A DNA stretch of 64,000 bases from Terriglobus albidus (GTDB lineage Bacteria > Acidobacteriota > Terriglobia > Terriglobales > Acidobacteriaceae): the NCBI RefSeq assembly GCF_025685425.1, contig NZ_JAGTAS010000048.1, positions 124,001 through 188,000 on the forward strand. The letters run 5' to 3'. The position numbers were made by a program, and so were the translations under genes. Positions 9,566 to 47,070 of the stretch are shown here, piece after piece; positions within the stretch are counted from its first letter, which is position 1; each line of letters opens with the position of its first letter. A model generated the notes under the pieces. That model made no database searches. It saw only the letters and a list, made by a program, of their open reading frames with translations, and had not been told where the DNA came from.

Positions 9566-9928
9566 ATGATCTCTCCCCGAAAACTGCTGCCATATCTGTT
9601 GGCGCTCGGGCTCTCTGCCTTTGTCTGCCTTACTGACGCCGCACTACCCCCTGTCGAGGCTCAGCAGATTGCCCCTGATGGAACCGAGACCGCTCCCGCT
9701 AAGCTGGACCTCAATGCTGCATCACCCGAACAGCTCAAATCGCTGGGACTGGGCGACAACTACGTTCGCCGCGTCATTGCAGGCCGTCCTTACACGGCGA
9801 AGAACCAGCTCGTAAGCCGTGGCGTTCTGCCGCAGGATGCGTACGAACCCATCAAAGAGCGGCTGGTCGCGCATCACTCCTTGCAGGAGCATCACTCCTC
9901 ACAGGAGCATCACTCCTCACAGCAATAG
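9566..9928 (+). CDS. Secreted helix-hairpin-helix protein (ComEA-like), copy 2
   Basis: A 120-residue paralogue of the preceding gene with signal peptide (about 1-33) and the helix-hairpin-helix domain (LDLNAASPEQLKSLGLGDNY, then GRPYTAKNQLVSRGVLP). In place of the usual PGIG hairpin it has GLGD, which may weaken DNA binding. The C terminus is a run of short tandem repeats of HHSSQE type, encoded by nearly identical 15-base units, and the TAG stop is the first three bases of a MITE-like element at 9926. The tail may therefore be of recent slippage or insertion origin. Confidence 0.82.
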   Translation: MISPRKLLPYLLALGLSAFVCLTDAALPPVEAQQIAPDGTETAPAKLDLNAASPEQLKSLGLGDNYVRRVIAGRPYTAKNQLVSRGVLPQDAYEPIKERLVAHHSLQEHHSSQEHHSSQQ

Positions 9929-10040
9929 AGCATTTCCCTGTAGGTGTAGTCCAGAGTATCCGCATCTATGGGCGTTTTCTGCAATGAAAACGCCGCTGCA
10001 CGCCCCTTCCGGGATACCCAGCAACAGGGAAAATGCTCTA
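9926..10040. repeat. MITE-like element, copy 1 (complete)
   Basis: 115 bp with terminal inverted repeats TAGAGCATTTCCCTGT and ACAGGGAAAATGCTCTA, and an inner palindrome around GCGTTTTCTGCAATGAAAACGC. Its left TAG is the stop codon of the upstream gene. No transposase frame is inside, so any movement would need a transposase supplied in trans. Confidence 0.8.
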
Positions 10041-10084
10041 ACTGCTCCGTAAACCATTCGGTCTGCTCGTTCGTCTTCGATGCC

Positions 10085-10198
10085 AGGAGCATTTCCCTGT
10101 GGATGTTGTGTAGGGCGTTCGCATCTATGGACGTTTTCCGCAATGAAAACGCCGCTGCACGCTCCTTCCGGGATACCCAGCAACAGGGAAATGCTCTA
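10085..10198. repeat. MITE-like element, copy 2
   Basis: About 114 bp in the same orientation as copy 1, 45 bases downstream. The left end is altered (AGGAGCATTTCCCTGT), the right end is intact (ACAGGGAAATGCTCTA), and the inner palindrome GCGTTTTCCGCAATGAAAACGC is conserved apart from one base. Confidence 0.78.
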
Positions 10199-10216
10199 GG
10201 ATGAGCACCGACACGG

Positions 10217-12859
10217 ATGCATACATTTTCCCCATCACGGCCGAGGCACCGCTCTGCCGTCGTGCAGTATCTGCTGCTCCTGCTCATCGCCGCCATGGCC
10301 CTGGGGCAATGGGGAAATACCGCGTACCGCATCGTGCGGGGCATCTTCGGCGCGGAGCGCGGAATTCGAGCTCCCTTCGGCCTGAACAACGGTGTGATCG
10401 AGGGGATGAGCCCCTTTCTTCGCCATGCGGGTCTGCAGATCGGTGACCGTGTGCTTGCGGTCAACGGGCACGCGTTGACCGGTGAGGCCGTTCTGCTGCG
10501 GGAGTTTGCCCACGCACATCTCGGTGACACCATCAAGGTGGAGGTGCAGCATCCCGATGGGAAACATCAGACGGTAAGCTGGCAACTCATCACGCCGCAG
10601 CGCCGCCGTGGCGGAGGCAGGCCCGCAGGATGGATCGGCCCATTGCTGCTGCTTGTTATTCTTCCCCTGGCCTTTCTTCTTGTTGGCCTCTGGGTGGTCC
10701 TTGCCAAGCCGCATGACCTCAGCGCATGGCTCGTCCTTGGCATCCTGCCTTACTTTGAGGCGCTCCTCTCTCCGGCTAACCCACAAGGGGACTGGACCAT
10801 CTGGTTTGCCCCCTTCTGGAATGAGACCGCACAGATGGCTATGCCCATCTGCCTGATGTGGTTTGGCGTTCTCTTTCCGGAGCGTGCCGGCCTCGATCGC
10901 CGGGCTCCATGGATCAAGTGGCTGTTGAGCATCTCTTTGCTTATCCTGATACCCTTCAACCTGCTTCACAGCTATGCGCGCCTCTGGAACCTGGCGCTCG
11001 ATCGCGCCATGAGCGCGTGGTTTTTGCCGACCGACCGCATCCAGAGCTTTCTCAGCATTCTCTGTGTTGCCTATTTCTTCGTTCTTTTCAGCCACAAGAT
11101 CTTCGCCGAAAAGGTCGGCGCCGACTCCGGCCGCCGTCTGCGCCTGCTCTTCTGGGGATCGCTTATCGGGCTCACTCCCTTTGGCGCCATGGTCATCTAC
11201 ACGCTCGTTACCGGTGAAGATGTCAGCGAGACCTTCCCGCAGTGGCTCAGCTTCGGCATCGTCTTGGTCCTGACAATCTTTCCGCTCTCACTCGCTTATG
11301 CGCTGGTCGTACAGCGGGCCATGGATGTTCGCCTGATCGTCCGCCAGGGAACGAAGTATGCCTTTGCGCGCTACACACTCTTCGGTATCCGCGCGCTGCT
11401 TGGGGTGCTCTTCTCCTGGCGTCTGGCGCTCTTCTTCTCCGCTTCGGGCACGCATCGCACATTACGTGATGTCGTTCTGGTTCTCCTTCTGCTCGGTCTC
11501 TTCTTCGCCTTTCGCGGCGTACTCTCCAGACGGCTGCAGCAGGAGATCGACCGCCGCTTCTTCCGCGAGGCCTATTCCGCCGAACAGGTGCTCAGCGAGC
11601 TCTCGGAACAGGCGCACAACTTCACAGAGACCGGGCCGCTACTCAGCACCATCACCCAGCGCATCAGCGACACGCTGCACATCGAGCGCATGGCAGTCTT
11701 CCTGCGTGGCCGCGGCGATGTCTTCCGCCTGCAGGCCGCGATCGGCGTCGATCTGACCTCGCCCGTCCTGTTACCGGCGCATTCAGCAACGGTCAATACG
11801 CTCTCCCGCGAAAAGCGCCCGGCGGCGATGCGCATCGACGACAGCTCTCACTGGCTGCTCGAAGCCAGCGATACAGAACGTGCCGCCCTCAGTGAGTTTC
11901 AGACTGAGCTGCTGGTTCCCCTGCCGGGCCGTGGACGCCTCATTGGCGTGATGGCTCTTGGTCCCAAGCGCAGCGAAGAGCCGTACTCTCGCACGGATCG
12001 CCGTCTATTGGAGAGCGTCGCCTCGCAGACCGGTCTTGCGCTTGAGAATGCGGAGTTGCTCCAGTCTCTCGCGCACGAAGCTGCCCAACGCGAGCGTGTC
12101 ACGCGCGATATCGAGATCGCACGCGAGGTGCAGGAACGTCTCTTTCCACAGAGCTATCCGGAATTCGAGGGCGTGGATGTTGCCGGCTACTGTCGCCCGG
12201 CGCAGGAGATCGGCGGCGACTACTACGACGTCATGGAAGTGAAGCGCGAGAGCGACGATGGTTCGCCGCAGCCGCGTCTGCTCGGCCTGGCCATCGGAGA
12301 CGTCTCGGGCAAAGGCATCTCGGCCGCGTTGTTGATGGCGAGTCTTCGCGCAAGTCTGCGAGGTCTCACGCTCGTCGGCTCTTCCGATCTCGGCGAGCTG
12401 ATGGGGCACATCAACAAGCTGGTTTATGACGGCAGCACCGCCAACCGCTACGCCACCTTCTTCTACGCTGAGTATGATCCCACGAGCCGCCGTCTCTGCT
12501 ACGCCAACGGCGGACATAATCCACCCGTAATCCTGCGCGGCGATCAGGTCATCGAGCTTGAAGTAACCGGCATGGTGATCGGCCTGCTGGAGAGTGATAC
12601 CGGGTACAAACAGCGGGATGTCTATCTCGAACCCGGAGACATCCTTCTGCTCTTCACCGACGGCATCTCTGAAGCCATGGACGACGGCGACGAAGAATGG
12701 GGCGAGTGCCGCATGATCGCCGCAGCTCAACAGGAACGCGCCCGCGGAGCGCTGACAGCAGAAGGCCTGTTACGCGCCCTCTATCGCCGCGCTGACGAGT
12801 TCGCAAATGGCGCTCCCCAGCACGACGACATGACACTGGTAGTGATGCGAGTCAGCTAA
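10217..12859 (+). CDS. Membrane-bound PDZ/GAF/SpoIIE-type serine phosphatase
   Basis: An 880-residue signalling protein. Order: one N-terminal membrane segment (about 16-35), a PDZ-like domain (about 50-115, GLQIGDRVLAVNGHAL), eight or nine membrane helices (about 135-430), a GAF-like sensor domain (about 455-620) and a C-terminal PP2C-type SpoIIE phosphatase domain (about 640-880) with its metal-binding segments EIGGDYYDV, LAIGDVSGKGI, ATFFYAEYD and LLLFTDGISEAMD. Such enzymes usually dephosphorylate anti-sigma-factor antagonists (partner-switching), but no such partner gene is nearby. The start is uncertain: AGGATGAG lies about 10 bases before the chosen ATG. Confidence 0.88.
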   Translation: MHTFSPSRPRHRSAVVQYLLLLLIAAMALGQWGNTAYRIVRGIFGAERGIRAPFGLNNGVIEGMSPFLRHAGLQIGDRVLAVNGHALTGEAVLLREFAHAHLGDTIKVEVQHPDGKHQTVSWQLITPQRRRGGGRPAGWIGPLLLLVILPLAFLLVGLWVVLAKPHDLSAWLVLGILPYFEALLSPANPQGDWTIWFAPFWNETAQMAMPICLMWFGVLFPERAGLDRRAPWIKWLLSISLLILIPFNLLHSYARLWNLALDRAMSAWFLPTDRIQSFLSILCVAYFFVLFSHKIFAEKVGADSGRRLRLLFWGSLIGLTPFGAMVIYTLVTGEDVSETFPQWLSFGIVLVLTIFPLSLAYALVVQRAMDVRLIVRQGTKYAFARYTLFGIRALLGVLFSWRLALFFSASGTHRTLRDVVLVLLLLGLFFAFRGVLSRRLQQEIDRRFFREAYSAEQVLSELSEQAHNFTETGPLLSTITQRISDTLHIERMAVFLRGRGDVFRLQAAIGVDLTSPVLLPAHSATVNTLSREKRPAAMRIDDSSHWLLEASDTERAALSEFQTELLVPLPGRGRLIGVMALGPKRSEEPYSRTDRRLLESVASQTGLALENAELLQSLAHEAAQRERVTRDIEIAREVQERLFPQSYPEFEGVDVAGYCRPAQEIGGDYYDVMEVKRESDDGSPQPRLLGLAIGDVSGKGISAALLMASLRASLRGLTLVGSSDLGELMGHINKLVYDGSTANRYATFFYAEYDPTSRRLCYANGGHNPPVILRGDQVIELEVTGMVIGLLESDTGYKQRDVYLEPGDILLLFTDGISEAMDDGDEEWGECRMIAAAQQERARGALTAEGLLRALYRRADEFANGAPQHDDMTLVVMRVS

Positions 12860-12902
12860 AGCAGTTGCTAGTTGCTGGTTCCTGGTTGCTAGTTGTTGAT
12901 GC
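12860..12902 (+). repeat. Post-stop heptad array, variant GTTGCTA
   Basis: Directly after the phosphatase stop, in gene direction, come GTTGCTA GTTGCTG GTTCCTG GTTGCTA GTTGTTG: a clean 7-nt period with the GTTG core but different filler bases from the GTTGAAA arrays. Confidence 0.6.
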
Positions 12903-12914
12903 CTGTACTTAGAA

Positions 12915-13040
12915 GAACTGGGTGCCCCATATCTGGCGGCTTTATCGCCAAATGTGGGTTTGCAGTCACCGAGTCCCGCTGGGAACAGGCATCCTCCAAA
13001 CCCACATCTCGGCGTAGCCGAGATATGGGGCACCCAGTTC
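12915..13040. repeat. GGGTGCCCC inverted-repeat element, copy 2 (20-bp perfect arms)
   Basis: 126 bp. The arms GAACTGGGTGCCCCATATCT (12915-12934) and its exact complement (13021-13040) are 20 bp and perfect. Inside are GGCGGctttatCGCC and CTCGGCgtaGCCGAG hairpins and paired TGTGGGTTTG/CCAAACCCACA segments. It contains no frame of useful length. Confidence 0.8.
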
Positions 13041-13143
13041 AACGTTGTCCATACCGTACGTCTTCAACCTTCAACTTGTAACTTCAACTCTTCTCGCCCA
13101 TGCCTTAACGCTTTAACTTTTAACTTTCAACTTTAACTCTTCT
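13041..13143 (-). repeat. Post-stop double GTTGAAA array behind the LssY_C gene
   Basis: On the minus strand, from 3 bases beyond the LssY_C gene stop: GTTGAAA GTTAAAA GTTAAAG then CGTTAAGGCATGGG, followed by GTTACAA GTTGAAG GTTGAAG and ACGTACGGTATGG. Two complete modules in tandem, abutting the 20-bp-arm element. Confidence 0.7.
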
Positions 13144-13145
13144 CG

Positions 13146-14300
13146 CTACTTCAACATCATCACCAGAATCCGCCCATCAGAATGAAACTCTCCACCGGTC
13201 GCGGTCTTTCCGCTCGAAAACGGATTATCCGGCAACACATAGGCTGCTGACGAAAACACGCCGGCGGCATCGAAGCTATCGAGGACGAACTTGCGCTCGA
13301 TGTCGATATCGGGATCGATGTGGTGGGTCACCTGCCCGTTGCGCTCATCTTTCTCAAAGCCGTTGTCATGCGTCGCCGATCCTACCCATAGCGGCACACC
13401 GTTGACCGTCTTACCGCTGTTCCATACGCGGAGATGATGCCGCACGGCGACGACGCTGATCGCCTCCGCTCGCGCATAGGACAAGTCTTGTGGCCGGTTG
13501 AAGAGATACAGTGTGCTCATCGGCATCTCCAGGTAAGCCTCATGCTCCAACGTGGAGATGATGCCATGCACGATGGCGGCATCGACGGACCGATCTACCT
13601 GTAACCAGCCGGCCGCCTTAAAGGCCTGCTCCACCTGTCCACGCGTGCCTATCAGGGCGAAGTTCACCATGTCGCCGACATTCCCCTGCTGATCTGTCAC
13701 GCGACGTGGGATCTCGGCGAAGGTCTCTGGAGAGATCAGCGAGGTAAGGTCCTGCAGCGGCGCCGCCAGTGCCTTCGGTGCGACTGCCTGTGGTTTGGGG
13801 AACTCCAGCTTGACGGTAAAGCTGCCTGTGGCTGAGATGCTTTCTGGAAGATTGACTCCAAGGTAAAGATGGCCGGAGGTGGGCGCCGTGACGGTGTCGC
13901 CTTCGCCAATGGGGAAGGGAATGGACGCTCCAGCATCGCTGACGCGTCCAATCAGTGATCCGACAGGAGCTGTGTTCATGGGAAAGCTTGCCAGCAGGTC
14001 GCGCCAGCCTCGATTGACACCTGCGGGCCCTGTCTTGCGGCCATCTGCAAGCTGAAAGCTTCCCTTTGCGCTCAGCTTCAGCGGCTCGCCCGCAGCCACG
14101 GTAACGCCGGTATCCAACCACGCCGTGTTAGCGACCGTAAAGCTATAGGACGACTTGCGTTGGGGAAGGGGCTGCGTCCCCAGTCTGGCCCGCATGCTGG
14201 GAATCGCGGTGACGCGTTGCTGCGGCGCCTCCTGTTGTTGCGCCAGGACGGCGGTGGAGAGAGCAAGGGGCCATGCCAGATAGGAGGGGAGCTTCACCAT
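13146..14300 (-). CDS. Secreted LecA-like/LssY_C domain protein
   Basis: A 384-residue exported protein: signal peptide (about 1-20), then a galactose-binding LecA (PA-IL)-like beta domain (about 45-165; WLDTGVTVAAGEPLKL, GSLIGRV, TAPTSGHLYLGVN), then an LssY C-terminal domain (about 215-384; DMVNFALIGT, AGWLQVDRSVD, LYLFNRPQDLSYARA, WVGSATHDNG). The LssY_C domain is of unknown biochemical function. The combination suggests an envelope protein that binds sugar. The ATG at 14300 was chosen because it begins a typical signal peptide; upstream in-frame codons lack one. Divergently transcribed from the DUF4397 gene. Confidence 0.82.
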   Translation of the reverse strand: MVKLPSYLAWPLALSTAVLAQQQEAPQQRVTAIPSMRARLGTQPLPQRKSSYSFTVANTAWLDTGVTVAAGEPLKLSAKGSFQLADGRKTGPAGVNRGWRDLLASFPMNTAPVGSLIGRVSDAGASIPFPIGEGDTVTAPTSGHLYLGVNLPESISATGSFTVKLEFPKPQAVAPKALAAPLQDLTSLISPETFAEIPRRVTDQQGNVGDMVNFALIGTRGQVEQAFKAAGWLQVDRSVDAAIVHGIISTLEHEAYLEMPMSTLYLFNRPQDLSYARAEAISVVAVRHHLRVWNSGKTVNGVPLWVGSATHDNGFEKDERNGQVTHHIDPDIDIERKFVLDSFDAAGVFSSAAYVLPDNPFSSGKTATGGEFHSDGRILVMMLK

Positions 14301-14397
14301 ACGACTTTCGTTCTGGGGAGTAACGACTTTCTCCCTAGGTTGATAACCCGGAATCAGGTACTCTGTTGCAAGCAGTCCACACGACTTAGACAGGCCA

Positions 14398-15144: not shown

Positions 15145-15267
15145 TGGACCGGATGTCGCGCTTCTGCGCGAAAAATAAACTTCGCAACATGGCGTATCTC
15201 CCCGTGTCTTCTCTCTCCGTAGGCAGGCGCTTCATCCCTGCTACTGCAATTGAAGGAGATTCCCCGT

Positions 15268-15591: not shown

Positions 15592-15619
15592 GCAGATGCG
15601 CGACAGACGGGTGCGGACC

Positions 15620-15733
15620 AACTGGGTGCCCCATATCTCGGCAAAGCCGAGATGTGGGTTTGCAGCGATAAAGCGCCCAGACACCACCGCAACGAGCGAG
15701 TTCGTTGCGGACCCCGGATATGGCGCACCCGAT
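15620..15733. repeat. GGGTGCCCC inverted-repeat element, copy 3 (degenerate)
   Basis: Left arm AACTGGGTGCCCCATATCT with hairpin CTCGGCaaaGCCGAG, inner TGTGGGTTTG, a second hairpin CGCAACGAgcgagTTCGTTGCG, and a decayed right arm GGATATGGCGCACCC. Lies just downstream of the small secreted protein gene. Confidence 0.7.
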
Positions 15734-15769
15734 TCTACTGAGCCGTTGAATCGATCTATCCCTCAAATG

Positions 15770-26920: not shown

Positions 26921-26941
26921 TAGCAACAGGGAAATGCTCTA
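26921..26941. repeat. MITE-like element, right-end fragment
   Basis: Only the terminal sequence TAGCAACAGGGAAATGCTCTA is present. On the minus strand its TAG is the stop codon of the glycosyltransferase gene, so the protein ends exactly at the element terminus. Confidence 0.7.
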
Positions 26942-28513
26942 CTCGTCGTCCAGCGAGACCTTTGCCTCGCCATCGCGAAGCGAGGTGGCCATAAACTGTG
27001 GCCGCCTCCGAGTCCTCTTTTTTGCGGGTGCGGGCGTCGACGGCTTGGGGTCAAGACGATAGACGATGAGCAGGTTGCGCTCCGGGTCGTCGAGGGCTGG
27101 GTATTCGGCCACCCGCGTTAGCTTATATAGCGGCGACAGGGCGTCCATCTTGTCATCCTCCACCAGGTTCCAGGTGATGAACCATCCAGGTTTATAGGCG
27201 GCGACACGCTGGTCGAGCGCCATAGTGCCGAAGTCGTCGCAGATGGCCGGCAACCCGGTCATCAAGGCAAGGTTCGATCCGGAGATGGAGAGGACCAGAT
27301 GGTTTCCTCGCGGGTCTGCGTCAATCAAGGATCGGATGCGGCGCGCCGCATTCAGGTAGGTGTACTCCGGCGTGCGCACATAGTGGATCGTCTTTGCCGC
27401 ATGCAGCACGGCGACGATCGCCAGTGCCGCAGCAGCAGCGCCACGTACCATCGCACGGTCCTCAGAGAGCAGTGTCAGAGAGATGGCCAACAGGATTGTT
27501 AGCGGAACCGCCACGACCAGGTAATACCTGGGCTGAAGATTGTTGTGATACGCCAGGAAAAAGAAGTAGCCGCCTACCCATAACAAAAGCGAGACATATA
27601 GCGGGTTGCGCCAGACCTTCCGATGGGTTACGACCACGGCCGCAAGCGCGACGGCAACCAGGAAGTAGGAGGCCCGTCCCATCCACATGCCGTCGCGGAA
27701 GGTATTGGCGATCACCTTCCACAAAGGCTCTTTATCGAAGCTGGTGTATTGGTTTGCGCTGAACAGGTAGCGGTAGTCGGCCAGGTAATGTGGCCGGACG
27801 AAGAGCAGGAAGTATCCGCCCCAGATCGCGGCGGCAATTACGCCTGCCGGCAGGGCAAACCGCAGCGCCACTCGCCAGTTGTATTCAGACTGCGCAAAGA
27901 CCATCCAGAAGATAGCAGGGAGCAGAAAGACTGCCGTCGTCTTGGTCAGCACCATGAGGGGCAGAATGATGCCAAGAGCCAGCACCGGCAGCCATCGCGC
28001 GCGTCCCGTTGCTGCCGGCTGCAGGAAAGATCCTGCGTACAGACCGAGCAGGGTAAGCAGGATGAGCAGCGGTTCCAGGATGGCGAGCCGGCTGAATGCG
28101 TAGATGAACGGACTTACCGTCAGAAGCAAGACCGCTATCGCAGGCACCAGCGAGCCCTGGCGCATACGGCGAAGCAGCAGATAGGTCACGATAAGGATGC
28201 TGCCGAAGACTCCAATCGCCAGGCCGCGTGCCGTGGCCAGGCTGACGCCGAAGATGGAGAAGACGATGGCTTCCAGAAGGGGCCAGACGGGGAGTGCGAC
28301 GGCAGGATTGAAGTCGCCTGAGACGTACCAGTTCCCGCGCAGGAAGTAGCGGATAGCGGCATCGCCGTACCAGCCTTCGTCCGTGTACTTGGCCCAGTCC
28401 ATCCAAGGGGAGTGGTTGGGGAAGTCAGCAGTCGGGTGTACGGCGTGCAACGCGAAGAACATTGCCGCGACAGCCAGCAGGGTTCCACGAAGAACACGGT
28501 AATTTCCGTTCAC
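26939..28513 (-). CDS. GT39/ArnT-like membrane glycosyltransferase
   Basis: A 524-residue integral membrane protein with about ten to twelve helices. The early loop has YTDEGWYGDAAIRYFLRGNW, whose acidic DE pair matches the catalytic loop of polyprenyl-phosphate-sugar transferases of the PMT/ArnT superfamily; WPLLEAIVFSIFGVS follows. The C-terminal part (about 410-524) is soluble. Probably transfers a sugar from a lipid carrier to a glycan, lipid or protein on the periplasmic side. GTG start. The stop comes from a MITE-like terminus and the last 30 residues are very basic then acidic. Confidence 0.8.
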   Translation of the reverse strand: MNGNYRVLRGTLLAVAAMFFALHAVHPTADFPNHSPWMDWAKYTDEGWYGDAAIRYFLRGNWYVSGDFNPAVALPVWPLLEAIVFSIFGVSLATARGLAIGVFGSILIVTYLLLRRMRQGSLVPAIAVLLLTVSPFIYAFSRLAILEPLLILLTLLGLYAGSFLQPAATGRARWLPVLALGIILPLMVLTKTTAVFLLPAIFWMVFAQSEYNWRVALRFALPAGVIAAAIWGGYFLLFVRPHYLADYRYLFSANQYTSFDKEPLWKVIANTFRDGMWMGRASYFLVAVALAAVVVTHRKVWRNPLYVSLLLWVGGYFFFLAYHNNLQPRYYLVVAVPLTILLAISLTLLSEDRAMVRGAAAAALAIVAVLHAAKTIHYVRTPEYTYLNAARRIRSLIDADPRGNHLVLSISGSNLALMTGLPAICDDFGTMALDQRVAAYKPGWFITWNLVEDDKMDALSPLYKLTRVAEYPALDDPERNLLIVYRLDPKPSTPAPAKKRTRRRPQFMATSLRDGEAKVSLDDE

Positions 28514-28603: not shown

Positions 28604-28646
28604 TTAGAAAATTTCCCTGTTGCCGGGTATCCCGGAAGGGAGATAG
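28604..28646. repeat. MITE-like element, left-end fragment
   Basis: TTAGAAAATTTCCCTGT followed by TGCCGGGTATCCCGGAAGG matches the reverse-oriented element family for about 40 bases and then stops. It lies 40 bases past the ABC permease stop. Confidence 0.6.
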
Positions 28647-29809: not shown

Positions 29810-29925
29810 TAGAGCGTTTTCCCTGTTACGAAGTATCCCGGAAGGGGAGTACAGCGGCGTTTTCATTGGGGAAAACGCCCATAAATGCGGCAGCCCTAGC
29901 TTACATCTACAGGGAAAATGCTTTA
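29810..29925. repeat. MITE-like element, copy 3
   Basis: About 116 bp: left TAGAGCGTTTTCCCTGT, inner palindrome GGCGTTTTCATTGGGGAAAACGCC, right ACAGGGAAAATGCTTTA. It directly abuts copy 4, sharing the TA at the junction, as expected if one inserted at the TA edge of the other or if a unit duplicated. Confidence 0.75.
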
Positions 29926-30040
29926 ATCGCATTTTCCCTGTTACTGGGTATCCCGGAAGGGGAGTACAGCAGCGTTTTCATTGGGGAAAACGCCCATAAA
30001 TGCGGCAGCCCTAGCTTACATCTACAGGGAAAATGCTCTA
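29925..30040. repeat. MITE-like element, copy 4
   Basis: About 116 bp and nearly identical in its interior to copy 3, with left AATCGCATTTTCCCTGT and an intact right end ACAGGGAAAATGCTCTA. On the minus strand its terminal TAG (30038-30040) is the stop codon of the O-antigen-polymerase-like gene. Confidence 0.77.
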
Positions 30041-31534
30041 GCTTTGCGTTTCACGAACGAATCCTGGCTGCCTGCGGCCTTGCATGATCGCTGTGCGACT
30101 GCGCGGGAGCAGCAGGCCGCCGATGAGTGGAAGTACATATACGGTGAAATAGGCGAGCCCGATCAGCACAGGCGTCATGAACGTGACCATCGAAGTAGGC
30201 GTATCAAGCAGGCCTTCATTGGCGCCATGCGCAGAAACCAACGTATATAAGAGGCCCCAGGGGGTCTCGCGAACGTCGCCTCCCACCGAATCGATGACCG
30301 CAAACACGATGATGTAGATGAAAGGACAGACGAAGAAGAGGCTGTTCCAGCCGTCCATCCCAAATGCCTCTGTAACTGGCGAAAACGAGACGCCTGTCGT
30401 GACGTCATCGTCGGCAAGTACTCCGATGCGATGGGCGTAAAAATTCCCCCAGGTTGTCAAGGGCTTATCGGGCCATAAAAAGTGAGGCACTGCGTTGTAC
30501 AAGTACGTCCAAAGCGGGGTGTAGCCGAGTTTGCCGTCGTTAATGACCGTTTCGAGCATGGCGTCATCCCAGCTGATCATCTGGAGGCGCTCGAGAAATG
30601 CTCCCACTGGTGCGTCGTAAAACAGCGGTTCGTTTTCCTTGCTCTTCGTGTCGCCTGCTTCTGAAGAGAGTTCGGCTCGAAATTCGTCGATACGGGAGAG
30701 GTTGTTGATTGCTTTATCGACAGCGCTGCCTGGGGTAAATCTGTCATTACGGCCTCCCTGCGCATATGGCACCAGGTAGTACACGATTCCTGCGCCCGCG
30801 ATGAGGAGGAAAGCGATCTGCCGGATAGAGAGCCTGCCGCCGCTGGCGGCCACAGCGATCAGCCAGGCGACAAGGCCCGCCAGCATTCCTTCTTTGGAGT
30901 ACATCAGAATGCCGACGGACACAAAGGTGTAAGCGCCGGCGAAGACTGCAATTAAGCTCACATTCTTGCGTCCTCCGCTGCGCTTGACTGTGTCGTACGT
31001 ACTGATCAGGATGGCAAGAGGTAGGAAGCTGTTCAGACGATGCAGCGCACTGGCAAAGGAGCCATTTTCAAGGCCGGAGATCGCTGAGAAGATATCAATG
31101 CCGACGGCGATGATGATGCAACCGATGGTCGCCTGCCGGGCGCTGGCGGGTGTAATGAGGCCGCTGAGAATGGCAGGTTTTTTGGTCAACGGCCGCTTCA
31201 CATACACAGCAACCAGCAGGACGAAGACGAAGCCGACGTTGGCCAGGATGGTGGTTTCAGGCACACGCAGCCTGCTGTCAGCCGCTTCCCACAAGATGGC
31301 CTTCATCACAAAACCAAGCAACGCTGTCAGGACGACATGGAAGAAGATGTAGCCGCCGCTTGGCGTCGACAGACCGCCTGCTGCATTGAAGGCCAGGGTC
31401 GCGACCATAACGTATGCAAATACGCCCAGCGCGAAAAAGGTCGATGTACCCTGAAGTACTTCGAGGAGGCAGAGCACGATGGCGAACAGGATTGCGCCCC
31501 ACAGGGGAACCTTGGTTGGGAAGGGGATTCGCAC
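30038..31534 (-). CDS. O-antigen-polymerase-like membrane protein
   Basis: A 498-residue protein with about twelve membrane helices and one large loop (about 260-350), the layout of Wzy/oligosaccharide-repeat-unit polymerases. The loop ends with FLWPDKPLTTWGNFYAHRIG and is followed by TTGVSFSPVTEAFGMDGW, patterns seen in this group. It would polymerise repeat units of a surface polysaccharide in the periplasm. Near a GT39-like transferase and three acyltransferases, consistent with an envelope-glycan role. GTG start; stop provided by a MITE terminus. Confidence 0.75.
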   Translation of the reverse strand: MRIPFPTKVPLWGAILFAIVLCLLEVLQGTSTFFALGVFAYVMVATLAFNAAGGLSTPSGGYIFFHVVLTALLGFVMKAILWEAADSRLRVPETTILANVGFVFVLLVAVYVKRPLTKKPAILSGLITPASARQATIGCIIIAVGIDIFSAISGLENGSFASALHRLNSFLPLAILISTYDTVKRSGGRKNVSLIAVFAGAYTFVSVGILMYSKEGMLAGLVAWLIAVAASGGRLSIRQIAFLLIAGAGIVYYLVPYAQGGRNDRFTPGSAVDKAINNLSRIDEFRAELSSEAGDTKSKENEPLFYDAPVGAFLERLQMISWDDAMLETVINDGKLGYTPLWTYLYNAVPHFLWPDKPLTTWGNFYAHRIGVLADDDVTTGVSFSPVTEAFGMDGWNSLFFVCPFIYIIVFAVIDSVGGDVRETPWGLLYTLVSAHGANEGLLDTPTSMVTFMTPVLIGLAYFTVYVLPLIGGLLLPRSRTAIMQGRRQPGFVRETQS

Positions 31535-41109: not shown

Positions 41110-41305
41110 GTTCCGGCACATAATCTGGGTGGACACACCCGTTCCTGTAACTTCAACGAGCAAATTCGTCCAGGACACTGATACCAGGGTCTGATGCCTC
41201 TGAATTAACAGAGAAAGAACGAGTGAAGCTGTGCTTCACTCCAGCGAAACAAGCTCGCTGGGCAACCCATATGCTCGAACCATATAAGCTTCGCCATCCT
41301 GCACT

Positions 41306-41345
41306 CGAGCATTTTCCCTGTTGCTGGGTATCCCGGAAGGCGGTG
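41306..41345. repeat. MITE-like element, left-end fragment
   Basis: GAGCATTTTCCCTGT then TGCTGGGTATCCCGGAAGG, identical to the reverse-oriented family; the right half is missing and replaced by the accD-like fragment. Confidence 0.7.
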
Positions 41346-41357
41346 TGCAGCCGCGCG

Positions 41358-41465
41358 GTCTCTGCAGCGTTCCTTCTGCAGCACGGCTTCTTCGATCGCG
41401 TCGTCTCACGCCGCGAACTGAAGGACTACAACATCCGAGCTCTAAGCTTCATGAACATGCAATGA
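41358..41465 (+). pseudogene. accD: C-terminal remnant resembling acetyl-CoA carboxylase beta subunit
   Basis: The frame to the TGA at 41463-41465 reads AAFLLQHGFFDRVVSRRELK and continues DYNIRALSFMN. This resembles the end of AccD (FLLEHGxxDxIVxRxELK pattern). About 35 codons remain, without start, zinc ribbon or biotin-binding parts. Probably a gene fragment captured or left by rearrangement next to a MITE end. Recognition is by motif memory only. Confidence 0.45.
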
Positions 41466-41558
41466 CGCAGTCGCCGGAAAGCCGTTAGTATGAAAGCAGC
41501 TTTAGCGCGACGATTCACGTCGTAGGCTGCTCCGATCTCAAAATCTTTTGAGGACAAG

Positions 41559-42662
41559 TTGAAGGCTAAAACACCTAACTTCTATCGTCCAGAACTGGAT
41601 GTGTTGCGCCTCTTCGCCTTTCTTCTGGTATTTTTTCTGCATGGATGGGATGAGATTCCGAGTCGTATCCCAGAATCCATTCATATGGCCGGCCGCTTTG
41701 GCGTATGCGTTTTCTTTCTGCTGAGCGCATACCTTATCACTGAACTTCTGGAGCGGGAAGAATCCAGCACAAATGACATCCGTCTCGGCGCGTTCTATGT
41801 GCGGCGATGCCTCAGGATCTGGCCGCTCTACTTCGCCATACTTGGAGCGGAGGTAGTCACTCGCATCATTCGCCCAACCGAACCTGGATACAAGATGCGT
41901 CTGCTGGCAAATCTCCTTCTGATGGGTAACTGGTATGTCGCTGCTCACGGCTTCAGCATCGCTATTGCCAGTCCACTCTGGAGCATCTCCGTTGAGGAGC
42001 AGTTCTACGTGCTCTGGCCTTCCGTCCGTAAGTTCTTCAAGAGGAAAGGCGCCCAACTTTTCTCTATCGTGATGTTCGTAGTGGGCTACATTGCCCTCTT
42101 TTGGTTGGGCTACACCCATGCTTCGGAACGTGCTGTCTGGGTCAACAGCTTTGTACTCTTCCAGTACTTTTGCAGCGGGTGTATGCTCTCGCTCCTGCTG
42201 CGAGGCCGCGCGCCACAATGGAATATCTTTACGCGCCTCCTGGTCGTTACGGCCGGGTTGGTTCTATTTGCCGCCGCCAGTTATCTGATGTTCGTCCCCT
42301 CCAATACCAACCCGTCTGCCATTATGTCCGGATATCTTCTGGTGAATATCGGTAGTTGCGTTGTATTTCTCGGATTTCTCGGGGCATCGGAAACCTTCAG
42401 TAAAGCGAGGCCGCTGATCTATCTCGGCAAGATCTCTTACGGGCTGTATGTCTTCCATTGGATCGTCCTTCTGATCTGTTTCAAGATCTTTACGCATCTA
42501 AGAGGCAGGTTCCACGTCCCTGAGGCAGTGCTGACGGCCGCCAGACTCTCCAGCGCACTGGCGTTTACGATCCTCATAGCAGCGTTATCCTACCGCTACT
42601 TTGAAGCTCCTGTGCTTCGATTCAAACGTTTGTTCGAAGTGGTGCATACACGAGAGGTTTAG
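41559..42662 (+). CDS. Acyltransferase-3 membrane protein 2
   Basis: A 367-residue acyltransferase-3 with about ten helices: RPELDVLRLFAFLLVFFLHG (catalytic His), GVCVFFLLSAYLITELLERE, FYVRRCLRIWPLYFAIL and PLWSISVEEQFYVLWPSV. The start is TTG at 41559 after GAGGAC; no ATG fits. Only moderately similar to the gene at 39907, so probably not a recent duplicate. The stop TAG (42660-42662) is the first three bases of a MITE-like element. Confidence 0.88.
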   Translation: MKAKTPNFYRPELDVLRLFAFLLVFFLHGWDEIPSRIPESIHMAGRFGVCVFFLLSAYLITELLEREESSTNDIRLGAFYVRRCLRIWPLYFAILGAEVVTRIIRPTEPGYKMRLLANLLLMGNWYVAAHGFSIAIASPLWSISVEEQFYVLWPSVRKFFKRKGAQLFSIVMFVVGYIALFWLGYTHASERAVWVNSFVLFQYFCSGCMLSLLLRGRAPQWNIFTRLLVVTAGLVLFAAASYLMFVPSNTNPSAIMSGYLLVNIGSCVVFLGFLGASETFSKARPLIYLGKISYGLYVFHWIVLLICFKIFTHLRGRFHVPEAVLTAARLSSALAFTILIAALSYRYFEAPVLRFKRLFEVVHTREV

Positions 42663-42751
42663 AGCATTCTGCCTGTTGCTGGGTATTCCCGAAGAGGAGT
42701 GCGGCGTTTTCGATGCGGAAGCCCTACGCTACACCTACAGGGAAAATGCAC
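42660..42751. repeat. MITE-like element, internally deleted copy
   Basis: Left TAGAGCATTCTGCCTGT, then TGCTGGGTATTCCCGAAG, a shortened middle with GCGTTTTCGATGCGG, and right ACCTACAGGGAAAATGC. About 92 bp. It separates two acyltransferase genes and gives the first its stop codon. Confidence 0.72.
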
Positions 42752-42867
42752 GCATGAGCGTCGGGGAACCGATATGTGGCACTCATGGTTTGTGGCTTTT
42801 CTCTTTGTCGTATCGACAACCTACGGATGCTACACTCGCTGAAAGCCGAGCATGGAGGGCATATCGT

Positions 42868-44058
42868 TTGGAGGCCGTAGCTTCTTCTTTGGAGAGCGAG
42901 GTCCCGGCGCGGATTGCCGGTGCACCGACGAGGGCGCCCAGTATCGGGGCCTATCGAAACTTCCATCTGGATACCGTAAGAGCGATTGCCGCCGCGGTCG
43001 TTGTGCTGGACCATACGCGTAGCGTTTTCTTTCGTCCATTTGCGGCATACAAATCGATCCCACATGGGCTGCTGGTGAATCTGGTCTATACGGACCACTA
43101 TTTTGCACGTGCCGCCGTGATGCTGTTCTTCCTGTTGAGCGGCTACCTGGTCGGAATGTCCGCCTTGCGGGCAGAGAAGAAGGCACGCTTCAGCTGGCCG
43201 AGCTATCTGTTGAGCCGTCTGTCACGGCTCTGGGTGGTTCTGTTACCTGCCCTCGTCGTCACCGCAATCTTCGATTGGATTGCCATACGGTATGGTCTTC
43301 CGCACTCCCAAACTCTGGCGGAGGCGGTAGAGCAACGGTCTTTGGCCAATTTTGCCGGGACACTGTTCTTTCTTCAGAAGATCTTCGTGGCTCCTTTTGG
43401 AAGCAATGGCGCAACTTGGAGTCTTGCCTTCGAGTTCTGGTATTACATCCTGTTTCCACTGGCGGCCTTAAGTGTTCTCAGGGCAAAGCGCCGCTGGCTG
43501 CATGGGACTCTCTTTGTTTTGCTGTGCTGGCTCTGCTGGCGAGAGATTCTCGGCCGCTTTCCGATCTGGTGCGCGGGTGTACTTGTAGGTATTGTCGCGG
43601 AGCGATGGCCGATTGCTTCCGCCAGGCTTCGGCGGGTTACGGTGACTGTGTCGCTGCTGGTGCTGCTTGCTGTGGTGTTGGCCTCGGCTGCACACCGCCT
43701 TGGTGCAGTGGGAACTGACTATGCCATCATGGTGCCTTCGTTCACACTGATCTGGGCTCTGATCTCAATGCCCCGGACTGAGGTAGGCGCCTACGCAAAA
43801 ACATCGATTTTCTTTTCTGAGATGTCTTACACGCTCTATCTGACCCATCAGCCGTTTGTCGTGCTTCTCTCTGCACTATGGATTCGTGAGCGGTTCTGGC
43901 CGGCGGATCTTCCACACCTGGCAATGCTGTTTTGTGGGCCGATTGCGCTCGCCTTTGTATTCGCGTACGTGATGTATCTGCTCTTTGAGTCCCGCACGGA
44001 TGCGGTGCGTAACTGGGCCCGCCGTGCCTTGCATATCGGTCAGTCTATGCACGCGTAA
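42868..44058 (+). CDS. Acyltransferase-3 membrane protein 3
   Basis: About 396 residues, ten helices. After an N-terminal tail of about 30 residues the domain begins RNFHLDTVRAIAAAVVVLDHTRS, with FLLSGYLVGM, LSRLSRLWVVLLPALV and SLAFEFWYYILFPLAA. The EFWYY word replaces the VEEQFY of the other two copies, so it belongs to a different acyltransferase-3 subgroup. The TTG at 42868 is preferred because GGAGGG lies eight bases upstream; longer in-frame readings start at an ATG (42754) or inside the MITE and would encode low-complexity sequence. Confidence 0.82.
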   Translation: MEAVASSLESEVPARIAGAPTRAPSIGAYRNFHLDTVRAIAAAVVVLDHTRSVFFRPFAAYKSIPHGLLVNLVYTDHYFARAAVMLFFLLSGYLVGMSALRAEKKARFSWPSYLLSRLSRLWVVLLPALVVTAIFDWIAIRYGLPHSQTLAEAVEQRSLANFAGTLFFLQKIFVAPFGSNGATWSLAFEFWYYILFPLAALSVLRAKRRWLHGTLFVLLCWLCWREILGRFPIWCAGVLVGIVAERWPIASARLRRVTVTVSLLVLLAVVLASAAHRLGAVGTDYAIMVPSFTLIWALISMPRTEVGAYAKTSIFFSEMSYTLYLTHQPFVVLLSALWIRERFWPADLPHLAMLFCGPIALAFVFAYVMYLLFESRTDAVRNWARRALHIGQSMHA

Positions 44059-44146
44059 CGTGGGGCTGAGCGTGTCGTCTGTATCAGAAGGTTTGATTCT
44101 TACGAAACTCTAAGTTTAGTCCTATGCCGAAGTCCGCTCCTGTCTT

Positions 44147-44206
44147 GCTTAAGGGCACGGCTTCAAGCCGTCCCTTTGAGCAAGGCATTCGCGCCTCAGG
44201 CGCGAA
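44147..44206. repeat. REP-like palindromes behind the AAA ATPase gene
   Basis: GGCACGGCTTCAAGCCGTCCC and TTCGCGCCtcaGGCGCGAA; the second begins directly after the ATPase stop at 44207. Same words as at 25580-25780 and 62210-62290. Confidence 0.65.
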
Positions 44207-45373
44207 CTAGCGAGCGGGCCAGGCCCACTTTGGTGTGTTGAAGAGTGTGGCCGCTTCCAGCGTGGTCTCTCCGAATGACTTGATCAGATGCAGGTGAGCG
44301 CAACCAGATTCGGCGAGGACGTTTTCGATAAGTACCGGAGCATGCGAGACGACGATGATTTGCGTGTTCTTCGCGGCGGAGCGGATCAGTCTTGCCAGCG
44401 CCGGCAGCAGGTCCGGATGCAGGCTGGTCTCCGGTTCGTTGAGAACCAGAAGCTCCGGCGGCCGCGGAGTTAGAAGGGCAGCCGTCAGCAGCAGATAGCG
44501 AAGTGTTCCATCAGAGAGCTCCTTCGCGGAGAGGGGACGCAGCAGACCGTGCTGCTGCAGGCAGATGCTGAAACCGCCGCCAGTGCTTTCGATGGAGAGG
44601 CTGCTTCCAGGAAAAGCATCGTCGATGGTGCGGGCAAGTTCTTCATCGGAGCGCAGTTCGAAGATCGTCTGCAGTGCGGCGGCGAGGTTGCTGCCATCGT
44701 GATGGAGCACTGGAGAGAAAGTGCCGATCTGGGCGGAGCGTACGGGCGAGTCTGCGTCGGTGCGGAAGTGATCGTAGAAGCGCCAGCTTCGAATCGATTC
44801 GCGAACAGCAAGCATCTCCGGCGCACGCTGGGGATCGGGAATGCTGGCGAGCATGCTGTCGGTGTCAGCGAGGTGTTGGGTCAGCATGACGGGTTCTTCG
44901 TCTCTGGTCGTTGAAAGCCAGACGAAGTTATTACGGCGGTCGACCATCGCAGAGGCTTTGCGATAGATGGGGCCGTTCCAGATGCACTCCCGCTTGATGC
45001 GTGGATCCAGTCCAAACATTGTCTTGGAGGGTGTCGGGTATCCGAGGTCAATGCTGTACCCATAGAGATCGCTGCCAAAGCCGAGCTTAAGGCTTGCAGA
45101 GTTCCTGCCAGCCAATGGCTCAACTTTATGCTCTCCCTGGCGCACGCTCCGCGCGATGGTCTCAGGGCCGGCCCAGAAGGTGGAGGGCAGCCCTCCTTCA
45201 CGCGCCAGCGAACCTACCACCGCGTTTTGTGCCGCATCGGCGAGCAGGCGTAACGAACGGTAGATGTTGGACTTCCCGCTGCCGTTGGCTCCAGTGACGA
45301 CGCTGAGCTGTCCCAGGGGAAGAACGAGATCGCGAATCGAGCGATATCCCTGGATGGCGATGGTGCGGATCAT
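44207..45373 (-). CDS. AAA-family ATPase (RecF/SMC-like AAA_21)
   Basis: A 388-residue cytosolic ATPase with Walker A GANGSGKSN at about 28-36 (preceded by IQGYRSIRDLVLPLGQLSVVTG), an ABC-type signature LSDGTLRYLLL and Walker B LLVLNEPETSLHPDLLPALA, plus SHAPVLIENV. This is the overcoming-lysogenisation/RecF-like AAA_21 group, which often acts in DNA repair or defence with a nuclease partner. No such partner is fused or adjacent, so the role is open. ATG at 45373 starts the domain cleanly; the long upstream frame is unlikely. Confidence 0.85.
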   Translation of the reverse strand: MIRTIAIQGYRSIRDLVLPLGQLSVVTGANGSGKSNIYRSLRLLADAAQNAVVGSLAREGGLPSTFWAGPETIARSVRQGEHKVEPLAGRNSASLKLGFGSDLYGYSIDLGYPTPSKTMFGLDPRIKRECIWNGPIYRKASAMVDRRNNFVWLSTTRDEEPVMLTQHLADTDSMLASIPDPQRAPEMLAVRESIRSWRFYDHFRTDADSPVRSAQIGTFSPVLHHDGSNLAAALQTIFELRSDEELARTIDDAFPGSSLSIESTGGGFSICLQQHGLLRPLSAKELSDGTLRYLLLTAALLTPRPPELLVLNEPETSLHPDLLPALARLIRSAAKNTQIIVVSHAPVLIENVLAESGCAHLHLIKSFGETTLEAATLFNTPKWAWPAR

Positions 45374-45432
45374 AGATGCAGCATAGCTGGTTGCACGCCG
45401 CAAAATGGCTGATTTCTTGTAGAGAGGCGAGG

Positions 45433-46179
45433 GTGACTCCGTGCTATGCTCCCGTCGTGCCAACTATCGTTGCAGCGCCTGCTACCGAGAGATCGCGGCA
45501 CTCCGTCGTCGTGCGTGTGACGCACTGGATCACGGTGTTGTGTTTTGTGGCGCTGCTGGTGACCGGTGTCGAGATTCTTCTCTCGCATCCGCGGTTCTAT
45601 TGGGGAGAGACCGGCAATGTGAACATGCATCCGTTGTTCACACTGCATGTGCCGTCGTCCCGCGCGATGGTGCCGACTGGTTACGCCGTCCTGCCGGATC
45701 AGAATGGATGGAGCCGCTATCTGCACTTTGAGGCGGCATGGCTGATTGTCCTGACGGGTATCGTCTACGTGCTGGCAAGTCTCTGGAACGGGCATCTTCG
45801 GCGTGATCTTCTGCCGGCAGGTGAGCAGCGCAACTGGAAGGCATACGTGGCGGTGTTGGGCAGATATCTTCGCCGCGCCCCGGTGAAAGAGAGCGGCGCT
45901 TATAACGCCGTGCAAAGAGCGGTCTATCTGGGCGTGATCTTCGGTCTGCTCCCACTGCTGATCTGGACTGGTTTGGCGCTCTCGCCCGCGATTGGTTCCG
46001 TTGCTCCGTGGGCGGTGGAAGCTCTGGGTGGACGGCAATCCGCGCGCACGCTGCACTTCTTCGCAACCATTGCGTTGGTCCTGTTCTTTATCGTGCATGT
46101 GGTGATGGTGGCGCTGGCTGGTTTCTGGAGCCGAACACGGGCGATGGTGACCGGCGCCGTGAAGGAGGAACAGCTATGA
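45433..46179 (+). CDS. Cytochrome b561-type membrane subunit of a molybdoenzyme
   Basis: A di-haem b-type cytochrome of about 248 residues with four membrane helices: RVTHWITVLCFVALLVTGVE (haem-ligand His), YLHFEAAWLIVLTGIVYVL, YNAVQRAVYLGVIFGLLPL and RTLHFFATIALVLFFIVHVV. It resembles cytochromes that pass electrons between the quinone pool and periplasmic oxidoreductases. Its stop overlaps the start of the molybdoenzyme gene (ATGA), showing they form one unit. The start is uncertain: GTG at 45433 has GAGAGG upstream; GTG at 45457 is also possible. Confidence 0.85.
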   Translation: MTPCYAPVVPTIVAAPATERSRHSVVVRVTHWITVLCFVALLVTGVEILLSHPRFYWGETGNVNMHPLFTLHVPSSRAMVPTGYAVLPDQNGWSRYLHFEAAWLIVLTGIVYVLASLWNGHLRRDLLPAGEQRNWKAYVAVLGRYLRRAPVKESGAYNAVQRAVYLGVIFGLLPLLIWTGLALSPAIGSVAPWAVEALGGRQSARTLHFFATIALVLFFIVHVVMVALAGFWSRTRAMVTGAVKEEQL

Positions 46180-46931
46180 GCATGACGCGGCGCAGGATGA
46201 TTACAGCGGCCGTCGCGGCAGGAGCCGGTATCTCTGCTGCAGGCGTAGCGGTGCGGCTGGCGCGGAGATATGGGCTGGTGCCTCCTGACAGTGGCGGTAT
46301 CTACGGCCCGGGCGAGACGTTGACCTACGCCACGCAACGTTTGATGACCACACATTCGATGGCGCGTGAGTTTTCCCGCGGCATGATCTCGAAGGCTCCG
46401 TTCGCGAATGAAATGCCGCCGCTCAACGCGGAGTTCAAGCGCCATCAGGCCGCGGGCTTCAAGGAGTGGAAGCTGACGGTCGACGGCATGGTGGCGCATC
46501 CGGCATCGCTCTCGCTTGCAGATCTAAAGGCACTCCCGCTGCGCAGCCAGATTACGGAGCTGGCATGCGAGGAGGGTTGGTCGTATATCGCGGAGTGGAT
46601 TGGCGCACCGCTCTTCGAGGTGCTACACGCCGCCGGCACGCTGCCCCAGGCTCGCTACGTTGTCTATCGTTCCATCGATCGCGACTGGTGGGAGAGCATC
46701 GACATGGCCGACGCCATGCATCCGCAGACACTGCTTACCTATGGTATGAACGATGACGATCTGCCGGTCAGGTTTGGTGGACCGCTGCGTCTTCGGCTGC
46801 CACGGCAGCTTGGCTACAAGAGCCTCAAGTTTGTCGATTCCATTACCATAACGGACTCAATGAAGCACTTCGGCAAGGGGCTGGGATCAGCTTCGCCGGA
46901 GGGCGGATATGCCTGGTACGCAGGCATTTAG
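46176..46931 (+). CDS. Tat-exported sulfite-oxidase-type molybdopterin oxidoreductase
   Basis: A 251-residue protein with a twin-arginine signal (MTRRRMITAAVAAGAG), so exported folded to the periplasm. The molybdopterin domain of the sulfite oxidase/MsrP type follows: WKLTVDGMVAHPASLSLADL, then ITELACEEGWSYIAEWIGAP with the molybdenum-ligand Cys about 131, and GGPLRLRLPRQLGYKSLKF. The dimerisation domain of sulfite oxidases is absent. Together with the overlapping cytochrome b gene it probably forms a quinone-linked reductase or dehydrogenase; substrate unknown. Confidence 0.9.
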   Translation: MSMTRRRMITAAVAAGAGISAAGVAVRLARRYGLVPPDSGGIYGPGETLTYATQRLMTTHSMAREFSRGMISKAPFANEMPPLNAEFKRHQAAGFKEWKLTVDGMVAHPASLSLADLKALPLRSQITELACEEGWSYIAEWIGAPLFEVLHAAGTLPQARYVVYRSIDRDWWESIDMADAMHPQTLLTYGMNDDDLPVRFGGPLRLRLPRQLGYKSLKFVDSITITDSMKHFGKGLGSASPEGGYAWYAGI

Positions 46932-46957
46932 ACTGCGTTGGCTTGCAATACCCGCTG

Positions 46958-47070
46958 TAGAGCATTTTCCCTGTAGGTGTAGTCCAGAGGATCTGCATTA
47001 TGGGCGTTTTCCGCAATGAAAACGCCGCTACGCCCTTTTCGGGATACCCAGGACCAGGGAAAATGCTCTA
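46958..47070. repeat. MITE-like element, copy 5 (complete)
   Basis: 113 bp with left TAGAGCATTTTCCCTGT, inner palindrome GCGTTTTCCGCAATGAAAACGC and right CAGGGAAAATGCTCTA. It lies 26 bases beyond the molybdoenzyme stop and is the copy with the least altered ends. Confidence 0.8.

What the first reader, a model, noticed from the sequence alone, without database searches (positions are those of the whole stretch)
9926..47070. MITE-like family whose terminal TAG serves as the stop codon of neighbouring genes
Five full or nearly full copies (9926, 10085, 29810, 29925, 46958), one deleted copy (42660) and three end fragments (26921, 28604, 41306) share terminal repeats TAGAGCATTTTCCCTGT and an inner GCGTTTTC/GAAAACGC palindrome. 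Four genes end exactly on the element TAG: the second helix-hairpin-helix gene, the glycosyltransferase, the O-antigen-polymerase-like gene and the second acyltransferase gene. Both ends begin TAG, so insertion at the TA of a stop codon would rebuild a stop on either side. This points to a TA-targeting (Tc1/mariner or IS630-like) non-autonomous element that survives at stop codons.
Basis: partly seen in the sequence, partly recalled or inferred. Interest (0 to 1): 0.78.

Follow-up and report, generated by a model that had tools for sequence, protein, structure and literature searches.

The report
Miniature transposons that double as stop codons
Soil bacteria of the Acidobacteriaceae family carry a short parasitic DNA element that, in about half of the copies examined, sits exactly in the stop codon of a host gene and supplies a replacement stop codon, which probably makes those copies harmless and lasting.

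Summary
In detail: the nine listed copies or fragments are in the window, and four genes end on an element TAG. The family is large: 584 end matches in this 6.1 Mb genome and 423 in a closed sister genome. Element-free orthologous sites read TA at the insertion point in 18 of the 23 that align cleanly, the other five being one base off (44 examined). In related genomes, 14 of 32 IS630-type transposase loci are bounded by the same ends 1,016-1,044 bp apart (backwards control 0). The repeat is a non-autonomous IS630-type (Tc1/mariner-like) MITE; no partner was found in this draft genome or in the sister. The stop-codon link is strong: in 58 of 124 insertion units a gene ends on the element edge, against about 9% expected. 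Diverged relatives in eight other genomes give 22 of 44, full-length IS630 copies 2 of 14. In 27 of 29 element-free orthologs the gene stops at the same codon. Survivorship is the best reading: the terminal TAG rebuilds the stop, so such copies are tolerated and last. A preference at insertion is not excluded. Prior art: RUP, an IS630-linked MITE, and BOX, which encodes the stop codon of 36 pneumococcal genes.

The parts
9566..9928 (+). small helix-hairpin-helix gene whose stop codon is the element TAG (9926-9928)
   Evidence: HHH_3 E 1.2e-4, below cut-off; the G128 ortholog also ends on an element, 14 codons apart; the extra residues are a short repeated motif
9926..10040 (-). full element copy
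   Evidence: profile match, 123 bits; folds at -50.7 kcal/mol, z -5.55
10085..10198 (-). nearly full element copy
26921..26941 (-). terminal fragment of the element; supplies the TAG stop of the gene 26939-28513
26939..28513 (-). PMT-type glycosyltransferase gene ending on the element fragment
28604..28641 (+). degraded end fragment
29810..29925 (+). first copy of a tandem pair
   Evidence: the sister genome G128 has a single copy at the orthologous place
29925..30040 (+). second copy of the tandem pair; its inner end reads ATCGC instead of GAGC
30038..31534 (-). gene without a Pfam match (reader: O-antigen-polymerase-like), stop TAG on the element edge
   Evidence: the G128 ortholog also ends on an element
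41305..41360 (+). left-half fragment of the element, edge TC, not at a called stop codon
41559..42662 (+). acyltransferase gene (Acyl_transf_3) whose stop is the element TAG
   Evidence: no ortholog in the G128 stretches fetched
42660..42753 (+). internally deleted element copy (94 bp) keeping the TAG edge
46958..47070 (-). full element copy, not at a called stop codon

Best explanation
The repeat is a ~116-bp non-autonomous transposon (MITE) of the IS630 (Tc1/mariner-like) type. It has 17-bp terminal inverted repeats around a central hairpin and inserts at TA dinucleotides, best at CTAG, duplicating the TA. It was presumably moved in trans by a transposase of an IS630 group that is still found in related Acidobacteriaceae; that transposase was not found in this genome or its sister. 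Each end reads TAG, so a copy that enters the TA of a TAA or TAG stop codon rebuilds a stop codon at the same place. Such copies cost almost nothing. Copies in genes are removed, and copies elsewhere between genes are removed more often. After long times about half of the survivors sit exactly in stop codons. Shown: the TA target, the terminal repeats shared with IS630 elements, the stop enrichment and the conserved stop position. Inferred: mobilisation in trans, and survivorship rather than targeted insertion as the cause of the enrichment.
For: TA target: 18 of 23 cleanly aligned element-free sites are TA, 5 are one base off, 21 of 44 were unscorable. IS630 ends: 14 of 32 loci carry paired TAGAGCATTTTC-like ends 1,016-1,044 bp apart; the backwards control gives 0 and 20 shuffles give 0-2. 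Positions 13-29, not used in that search, match the MITE right end at 7-14 of 17 (mean 10.2, 0 of 2,000 shuffles) and the left end at 4-11 (mean 7.4, 2 of 2,000) in 26 ends of 13 elements. IS and MITE share C or T before the TA: 14 of 14 IS left edges, 46 of 53 MITEs. Stop enrichment: 36 of 74 units here against 8.6% expected, 22 of 50 in G128 against 8.9%; in convergent regions 13 of 17 and 11 of 14 against 18% and 15.5%. It repeats in diverged families: 22 of 44 in eight genomes against 7.5%. Stop position identical in 27 of 29 element-free orthologs. Survivorship: full-length IS630 copies are at stops in only 2 of 14 (Fisher p 0.023 against 80 of 168 MITEs); the share at stops rises from 11 of 31 in the best-scoring quartile to 19 of 31 in the most diverged; one G128 copy sits in a Tyr TAC codon seven codons before the normal stop and shortens the protein.
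Against: Stop TAs are still 2.6 times hotter than TAs 1-25 bp downstream after allowing for local target sequence (p 5e-4), although a copy just behind a stop should be about as harmless. Copies shared by both genomes are not more often at stops than lineage-specific ones (7 of 15 against 18 of 44). The IS comparison rests on 14 copies, mostly in draft genomes, and 5 of the 14 have a stop inside the matched transposase stretch, so they are not all young. Six of the 27 same-position orthologs use TGA, against 6 of 69 in the background, which a pure TA-stop model does not predict. On the IS630 link: the transposase query was chosen because its locus had a matching end, and of the 32 DDE_3 loci first examined only one had a paired matching end at both sides (a script with a flaw that can skip hits). 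No partner was found in the genome, and no transposition was observed.
Confidence: 0.63

Rival explanations
1. Targeted insertion: the transposase or a host factor favours TA sites in stop codons (by sequence context, DNA shape or transcription state), so the enrichment arises at insertion.
For: Even the best-scoring quartile has 11 of 31 at stops, and lineage-specific copies 18 of 44. Stop TAs remain 2.6-fold hotter than TAs 1-25 bp downstream after target-sequence correction; stratified by 4-mer, 38 are observed at stops against 11.5 expected (82 of 124 units usable).
Against: Full-length IS630 copies with the same ends and the same C/T-before-TA preference are at stops in only 2 of 14. The share at stops is higher among diverged copies. 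Insertion into a sense Tyr codon near a C-terminus occurs.
Confidence: 0.26
2. Positive selection: the element is kept at stop codons because its hairpin, starting in the stop codon itself, stabilises or ends the mRNA.
For: One copy folds far better than its shuffles. In some other genera the central hairpin has different letters (15 of 33 copies have a stem that at most 5% of shuffles reach). Pairs covary (13 cells changed on both sides, 0 of 500 shuffles), but 10 of those 13 cells are one change in the terminal repeat of related G116 rows.
Against: Copies at stops are more diverged, not better conserved, than others (mean profile score 106.9 against 113.3, p 0.024). By eye there is no T-run terminator signature, and two of the four window stops are held by a lone ~20-bp end and by a copy that has lost half of the central hairpin.
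Confidence: 0.08
3. REP/REPIN-type repeat moved by a RAYT (Y1) transposase.
For: The genome has 10 Y1-type transposase matches, and the element is palindromic and sometimes tandem.
Against: Only two of the 10 Y1 loci have a clear element copy within the ~1.5 kb flank, and these two carry their own, different palindromes (by eye). The element has long terminal repeats and a TA target, which RAYT REPs do not (recalled).
Confidence: 0.02

Closest known systems
RUP (repeat unit of pneumococcus), proposed to be mobilised by IS630-Spn1
   Same: ~107-bp non-coding MITE, TA at the ends and as target, terminal repeats like those of an IS630 element, over 100 copies (PMC2229807, passages; PMC3049150, passages); over-represented between convergent genes, read there as weak selection downstream of genes
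   Different: Different sequence and phylum; the passages seen do not report stop-codon insertion for RUP; here no related IS630 was found in the genome
BOX elements of Streptococcus pneumoniae
   Same: In 36 of the 58 genes overlapping BOX, the BOX repeat encodes the stop codon at the extreme 3' end, without strong evidence of truncation (PMC3049150, passages)
   Different: BOX is modular (boxA/B/C) and linked to ISSpn2, not IS630; that passage gives no comparison with available sites; here the stop is the TA-duplicated TAG edge and the share is about half in several genera
MITEs of Haloquadratum walsbyi
   Same: MITEs with strain-specific insertions although no functional copy of the matching transposase was found in the genome (PMC3119063, passages)
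   Different: Archaeon; its ~110-bp 'short mobile repeats', a separate class there, make no target duplication
RIME / Bru-RS palindromic repeats of Rhizobiales (recalled, not tested)
   Same: ~100-bp intergenic palindromes with ends of the type GAGCAT... (recalled)
   Different: Not compared by sequence here

Membership tests
IS630/Tc1-mariner-type MITE | short non-coding element with terminal inverted repeats | tested here: met
   ~116 bp, 17-bp repeats, too short for a transposase
IS630/Tc1-mariner-type MITE | TA target duplicated on insertion | tested here: met
   18 of 23 cleanly aligned empty sites TA, 5 one base off; 21 of 44 unscorable;
IS630/Tc1-mariner-type MITE | ends shared with an element encoding a DDE transposase of the family | tested here: met
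   14 of 32 loci in related genomes, backwards control 0; e.g. a 1,024-bp element in G263, same genus (L242; its matched transposase stretch holds one stop)
IS630/Tc1-mariner-type MITE | autonomous partner in the same genome | tested here: not met
   one IS630 with unrelated ends (TATTGATTCCTG) and one partial at a contig end; no relative of the matching group at E 1e-30 in G000 (58 contigs) or closed G128. Not required of a MITE
IS630/Tc1-mariner-type MITE | mobilisation in trans | not testable with these tools
   needs a transposition assay
REP / RAYT repeat | repeat flanks a Y1 transposase gene | tested here: not met
   10 Y1 loci; two have a clear element copy within the ~1.5 kb flank, and those carry other palindromes of their own
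RUP | sequence membership of the pneumococcal family | not tested
   no RUP sequence was fetched
BOX | boxA-boxB-boxC modules | not tested
   not compared; the architecture here is one unit with a central hairpin
Rfam RNA family | match to a curated family at the element | tested here: not met
   at gathering thresholds only Acido-Lenti-1, elsewhere in the window

The most novel reading that the evidence does not exclude
The element has a true insertion preference for stop codons beyond local sequence: a transposon whose TAG ends and target choice together make gene ends its niche, so that it spreads to hundreds of copies without breaking genes.
Probability: 0.24. Interest if true: 0.75.

Novelty: new variant of a known kind. 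Interest (0 to 1): 0.52.

Why it matters
It gives a countable case of a 'safe haven' for a DNA parasite made by three letters: ends that spell a stop codon. If the sampled share of about half holds for the roughly 300 copies, well over a hundred host genes in this genome take their stop codon from a transposon. The TA-stop niche makes a general question testable: how far do selection after insertion and choice at insertion each shape where transposons sit? It also warns annotators that gene ends and repeat edges can coincide for a biological reason.

Tried and rejected
RAYT/REP origin: of 10 Y1 transposase loci, two have a clear element copy in the flank, and these carry their own palindromes. 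The IS630 of this genome as partner: its ends differ. G085 locus L157 as a possible autonomous end: ordinary genes on either side, judged from the open frames. Pairs of copies 1.5-1.7 kb apart in G158 as composite transposons: open frames between them do not look like a transposase (not searched against a library). Local target sequence as the whole cause of the stop excess: rejected by 4-mer and 6-mer stratification, 38 observed against 11.5-11.8 (42 of 124 units dropped because an edge no longer reads TA). Lock-in (the TAG edge kept after the rest is deleted): 10 of 27 TA-preceded lone ends are stops, against 59 of 248 edges of full units, Fisher p 0.16. A lower stop share among lineage-specific copies was expected under survivorship and not found.

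Script flaw: searches used a fuzzy-match flag that can skip hits. The counts that matter were redone without it; one search replaces the 23 of 46 and 1 of 12.

Changed on checking: the confidence in the best explanation went from 0.66 to 0.63 and in targeting from 0.24 to 0.26, because 5 of the 14 full-length IS630 copies have a stop inside the matched transposase stretch, which weakens the argument that they are young.

Literature: eight full-text searches were answered. Only the listed top rows (5 to 20 per search, of up to 1,476 papers) were seen, as titles and abstract starts. Six papers were opened for passages; none was read whole. Among these I saw no report of stop-codon enrichment for IS630-type MITEs or of this family in Acidobacteria. 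The library is open-access only.

Full report
What is in the window. The terminal repeat TAGAGCATTTTCCCTGT occurs 10 times with up to 3 mismatches against 0.06 expected. A profile built from 24 copies finds the listed full, deleted and two of the three partial copies; the third, at 26921, is a ~20-bp end. Genes 9566-9928, 26939-28513, 30038-31534 and 41559-42662 end on an element TAG. Two of these four stops are now held by a lone end and by an internally deleted copy.

Scale. The end has 584 matches with up to 2 mismatches in the 6,104,258-base genome (291 forward, 293 reverse; backwards control 0). Of 200 genomes drawn from the same family, this one included, 80 have at least one match, but single matches are near background (the backwards control also hits once or twice in some genomes); 12 of 200 have ten or more. 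The sister genome G128 has 423, and the other six same-genus genomes have none to two. Exact 34-base matches in the named genome collection lie in 11 stretches of two Acidobacteria metagenome-assembled genomes; records very near the window's genome may be left out there. The family is therefore patchy and has burst in a few lineages.

Anatomy. The unit is ~116 bp: 17-bp terminal repeats and a central hairpin (GGCGTTTTC/GAAAACGCC); one copy folds at -50.7 kcal/mol, z -5.55. In some other genomes a central hairpin has different letters, for example GCAGCTTTTC/GAAAAGCTGC. In 15 of 33 such copies the best stem is reached by at most 5% of shuffles; in the others it is not distinctive. In a 32-row alignment 13 cells have changes on both sides of a pair (0 of 500 shuffles), but 10 of them are one change in the terminal repeat of related G116 rows, another measure is at chance (145 of 500), and one row is off register. 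The case for a conserved structure is therefore modest. Both orientations occur. Some copies form head-to-tail arrays of ~114-bp units whose inner ends read mostly (R)TCGC instead of GAGC. One four-copy array faces an empty TA in G128, and the pair at 29810-30040 is a single copy in G128.

Target. Flanks of intact left edges show C or T before the TA (46 of 53), and intact right edges a G/T-C-G bias behind it (45 copies). The most used 4-mer per site is CTAG. Comparing 864 kb of this genome with 1.26 Mb of G128 gave 44 element-free orthologous sites. Of these 23 align cleanly at the junction: 18 TA, 2 CA, 2 TG, 1 GA; the other 21 have gaps or low identity. This fits TA duplication with later point changes.

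The mobiliser. This genome has two DDE_3 (IS630) matches: one element with unrelated ends and one partial at a contig end. In 17 genomes that carry the repeat, 10 have DDE_3 matches. Of 32 DDE_3 loci then examined, one, a 1,025-bp element in G062, had paired matching ends and a few more had one. I chose one of these, in G133, as query because of its matching end. Against 398 family genomes it found relatives in 51 (E 1e-30), none in G000 or G128. Of 32 loci examined (30 from this search, two), 14 have paired TAGAGCATTTTC-like ends 1,016-1,044 bp apart; the backwards pattern gives 0 and 20 shuffles give 0-2. One is in G263, of the same genus. Positions 13-29, not used to find them, match the MITE right end at 7-14 of 17 (mean 10.2; 0 of 2,000 shuffles) and the left end at 4-11 (mean 7.4; 2 of 2,000), for 26 ends of 13 elements, which are related to each other. 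The MITE is thus IS630-type. Its present partner, if any, was not found; G000 is a draft in 58 contigs, G128 is closed.

Stop codons. Genes were called with a simple codon-usage caller (86% coding in the first set). In the two genomes 58 of 124 insertion units have a gene whose stop codon is the element edge: 36 of 74 and 22 of 50, where stop TAs make up 8.6% and 8.9% of non-coding plus stop TAs (p 3e-19 and 6e-11). The C28 stretches were picked because they held element matches (20 of 43 units at stops); the contiguous first 400 kb of C39 gives 13 of 26 and the window 3 of 5. In convergent regions the figures are 13 of 17 and 11 of 14 against 18% and 15.5%. In 58 loci from eight other genomes with diverged relatives, 42 hold a qualifying full copy; 22 of 44 copies are at stops against 7.5% (p 7e-14; 16 loci had none). 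Of 59 stop edges, 39 had a usable ortholog (16 none, 4 low identity). Of 29 element-free orthologs, 27 stop at the same codon and two are 5 and 7 codons longer; ten orthologs also end on an element, eight of them at the same codon. In a background sample 92 of 102 genes keep their end. So the copies sit in true, old stop codons rather than truncating genes.

Why stop codons. Local sequence explains part: stop TAs are 1.66 times more favourable targets. After that correction they are 2.6 times hotter than TAs 1-25 bp downstream and 5.2 times hotter than TAs 26-200 bp downstream. Survivorship is favoured by the low share among full-length IS630 copies (2 of 14), by the higher share among diverged MITE copies, and by the sense-codon insertion near a C-terminus. 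Against it stand the residual 2.6-fold excess over close neighbours, the equal shares among shared and lineage-specific copies, the TGA excess in orthologs (6 of 27 against 6 of 69), and the fact that 5 of the 14 IS copies have a stop in the matched stretch and so are not all young. I put survivorship at about twice the odds of targeting.

What is known. RUP is a MITE with TA at its ends, proposed to be moved by IS630-Spn1 (PMC2229807, passages). For BOX, Croucher and co-workers report that the repeat encodes the stop codon at the 3' end of 36 pneumococcal genes without strong evidence of truncation (PMC3049150, passages). They also find BOX, RUP and IS elements over-represented between convergent genes and point to weak selection downstream of genes, which is the same line of thought as survivorship. 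A 2024 review of prokaryotic MITEs has no 'stop codon' in its main text (PMC10969869, term search). The class of event is therefore known. What I did not find in print, in the searches named under Tried and rejected, is the quantified TA-stop niche, its repetition across genera, and this acidobacterial family.

Noticed in passing
window 53625-53669 (-): Acido-Lenti-1 RNA, above the Rfam gathering score.
   Followed up: no
L106 5262-5720 and 8761-9102; window 29810-30040: Head-to-tail arrays of 2-4 units with a changed inner end (mostly (R)TCGC for GAGC); copy number differs between sister species at the window pair, so arrays expand or contract.
   Followed up: partly
G000 and G128 stretches: Non-stop insertions also peak 11-25 bp upstream of start codons (13 insertions on 737 TA sites, against 7 on 931 at 26-50 bp), as if edges just outside the ribosome-binding site were another tolerated place.
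   Followed up: no
L065, L069: Y1 (RAYT-like) transposase genes flanked by their own palindromes (GGCTTCAGCC / GGCTTTAGCC type, seen by eye), a second repeat family in this genome.
   Followed up: partly
L199 (G062:C2) 1020-2007: The 1,025-bp IS630 element has two overlapping open frames, as if the transposase were made by frameshifting or were broken.
   Followed up: no
27 same-position, element-free orthologs: Six use TGA, more than in the background (6 of 69 TAG/TAA genes), although a TA insertion needs TAA or TAG.
   Followed up: no
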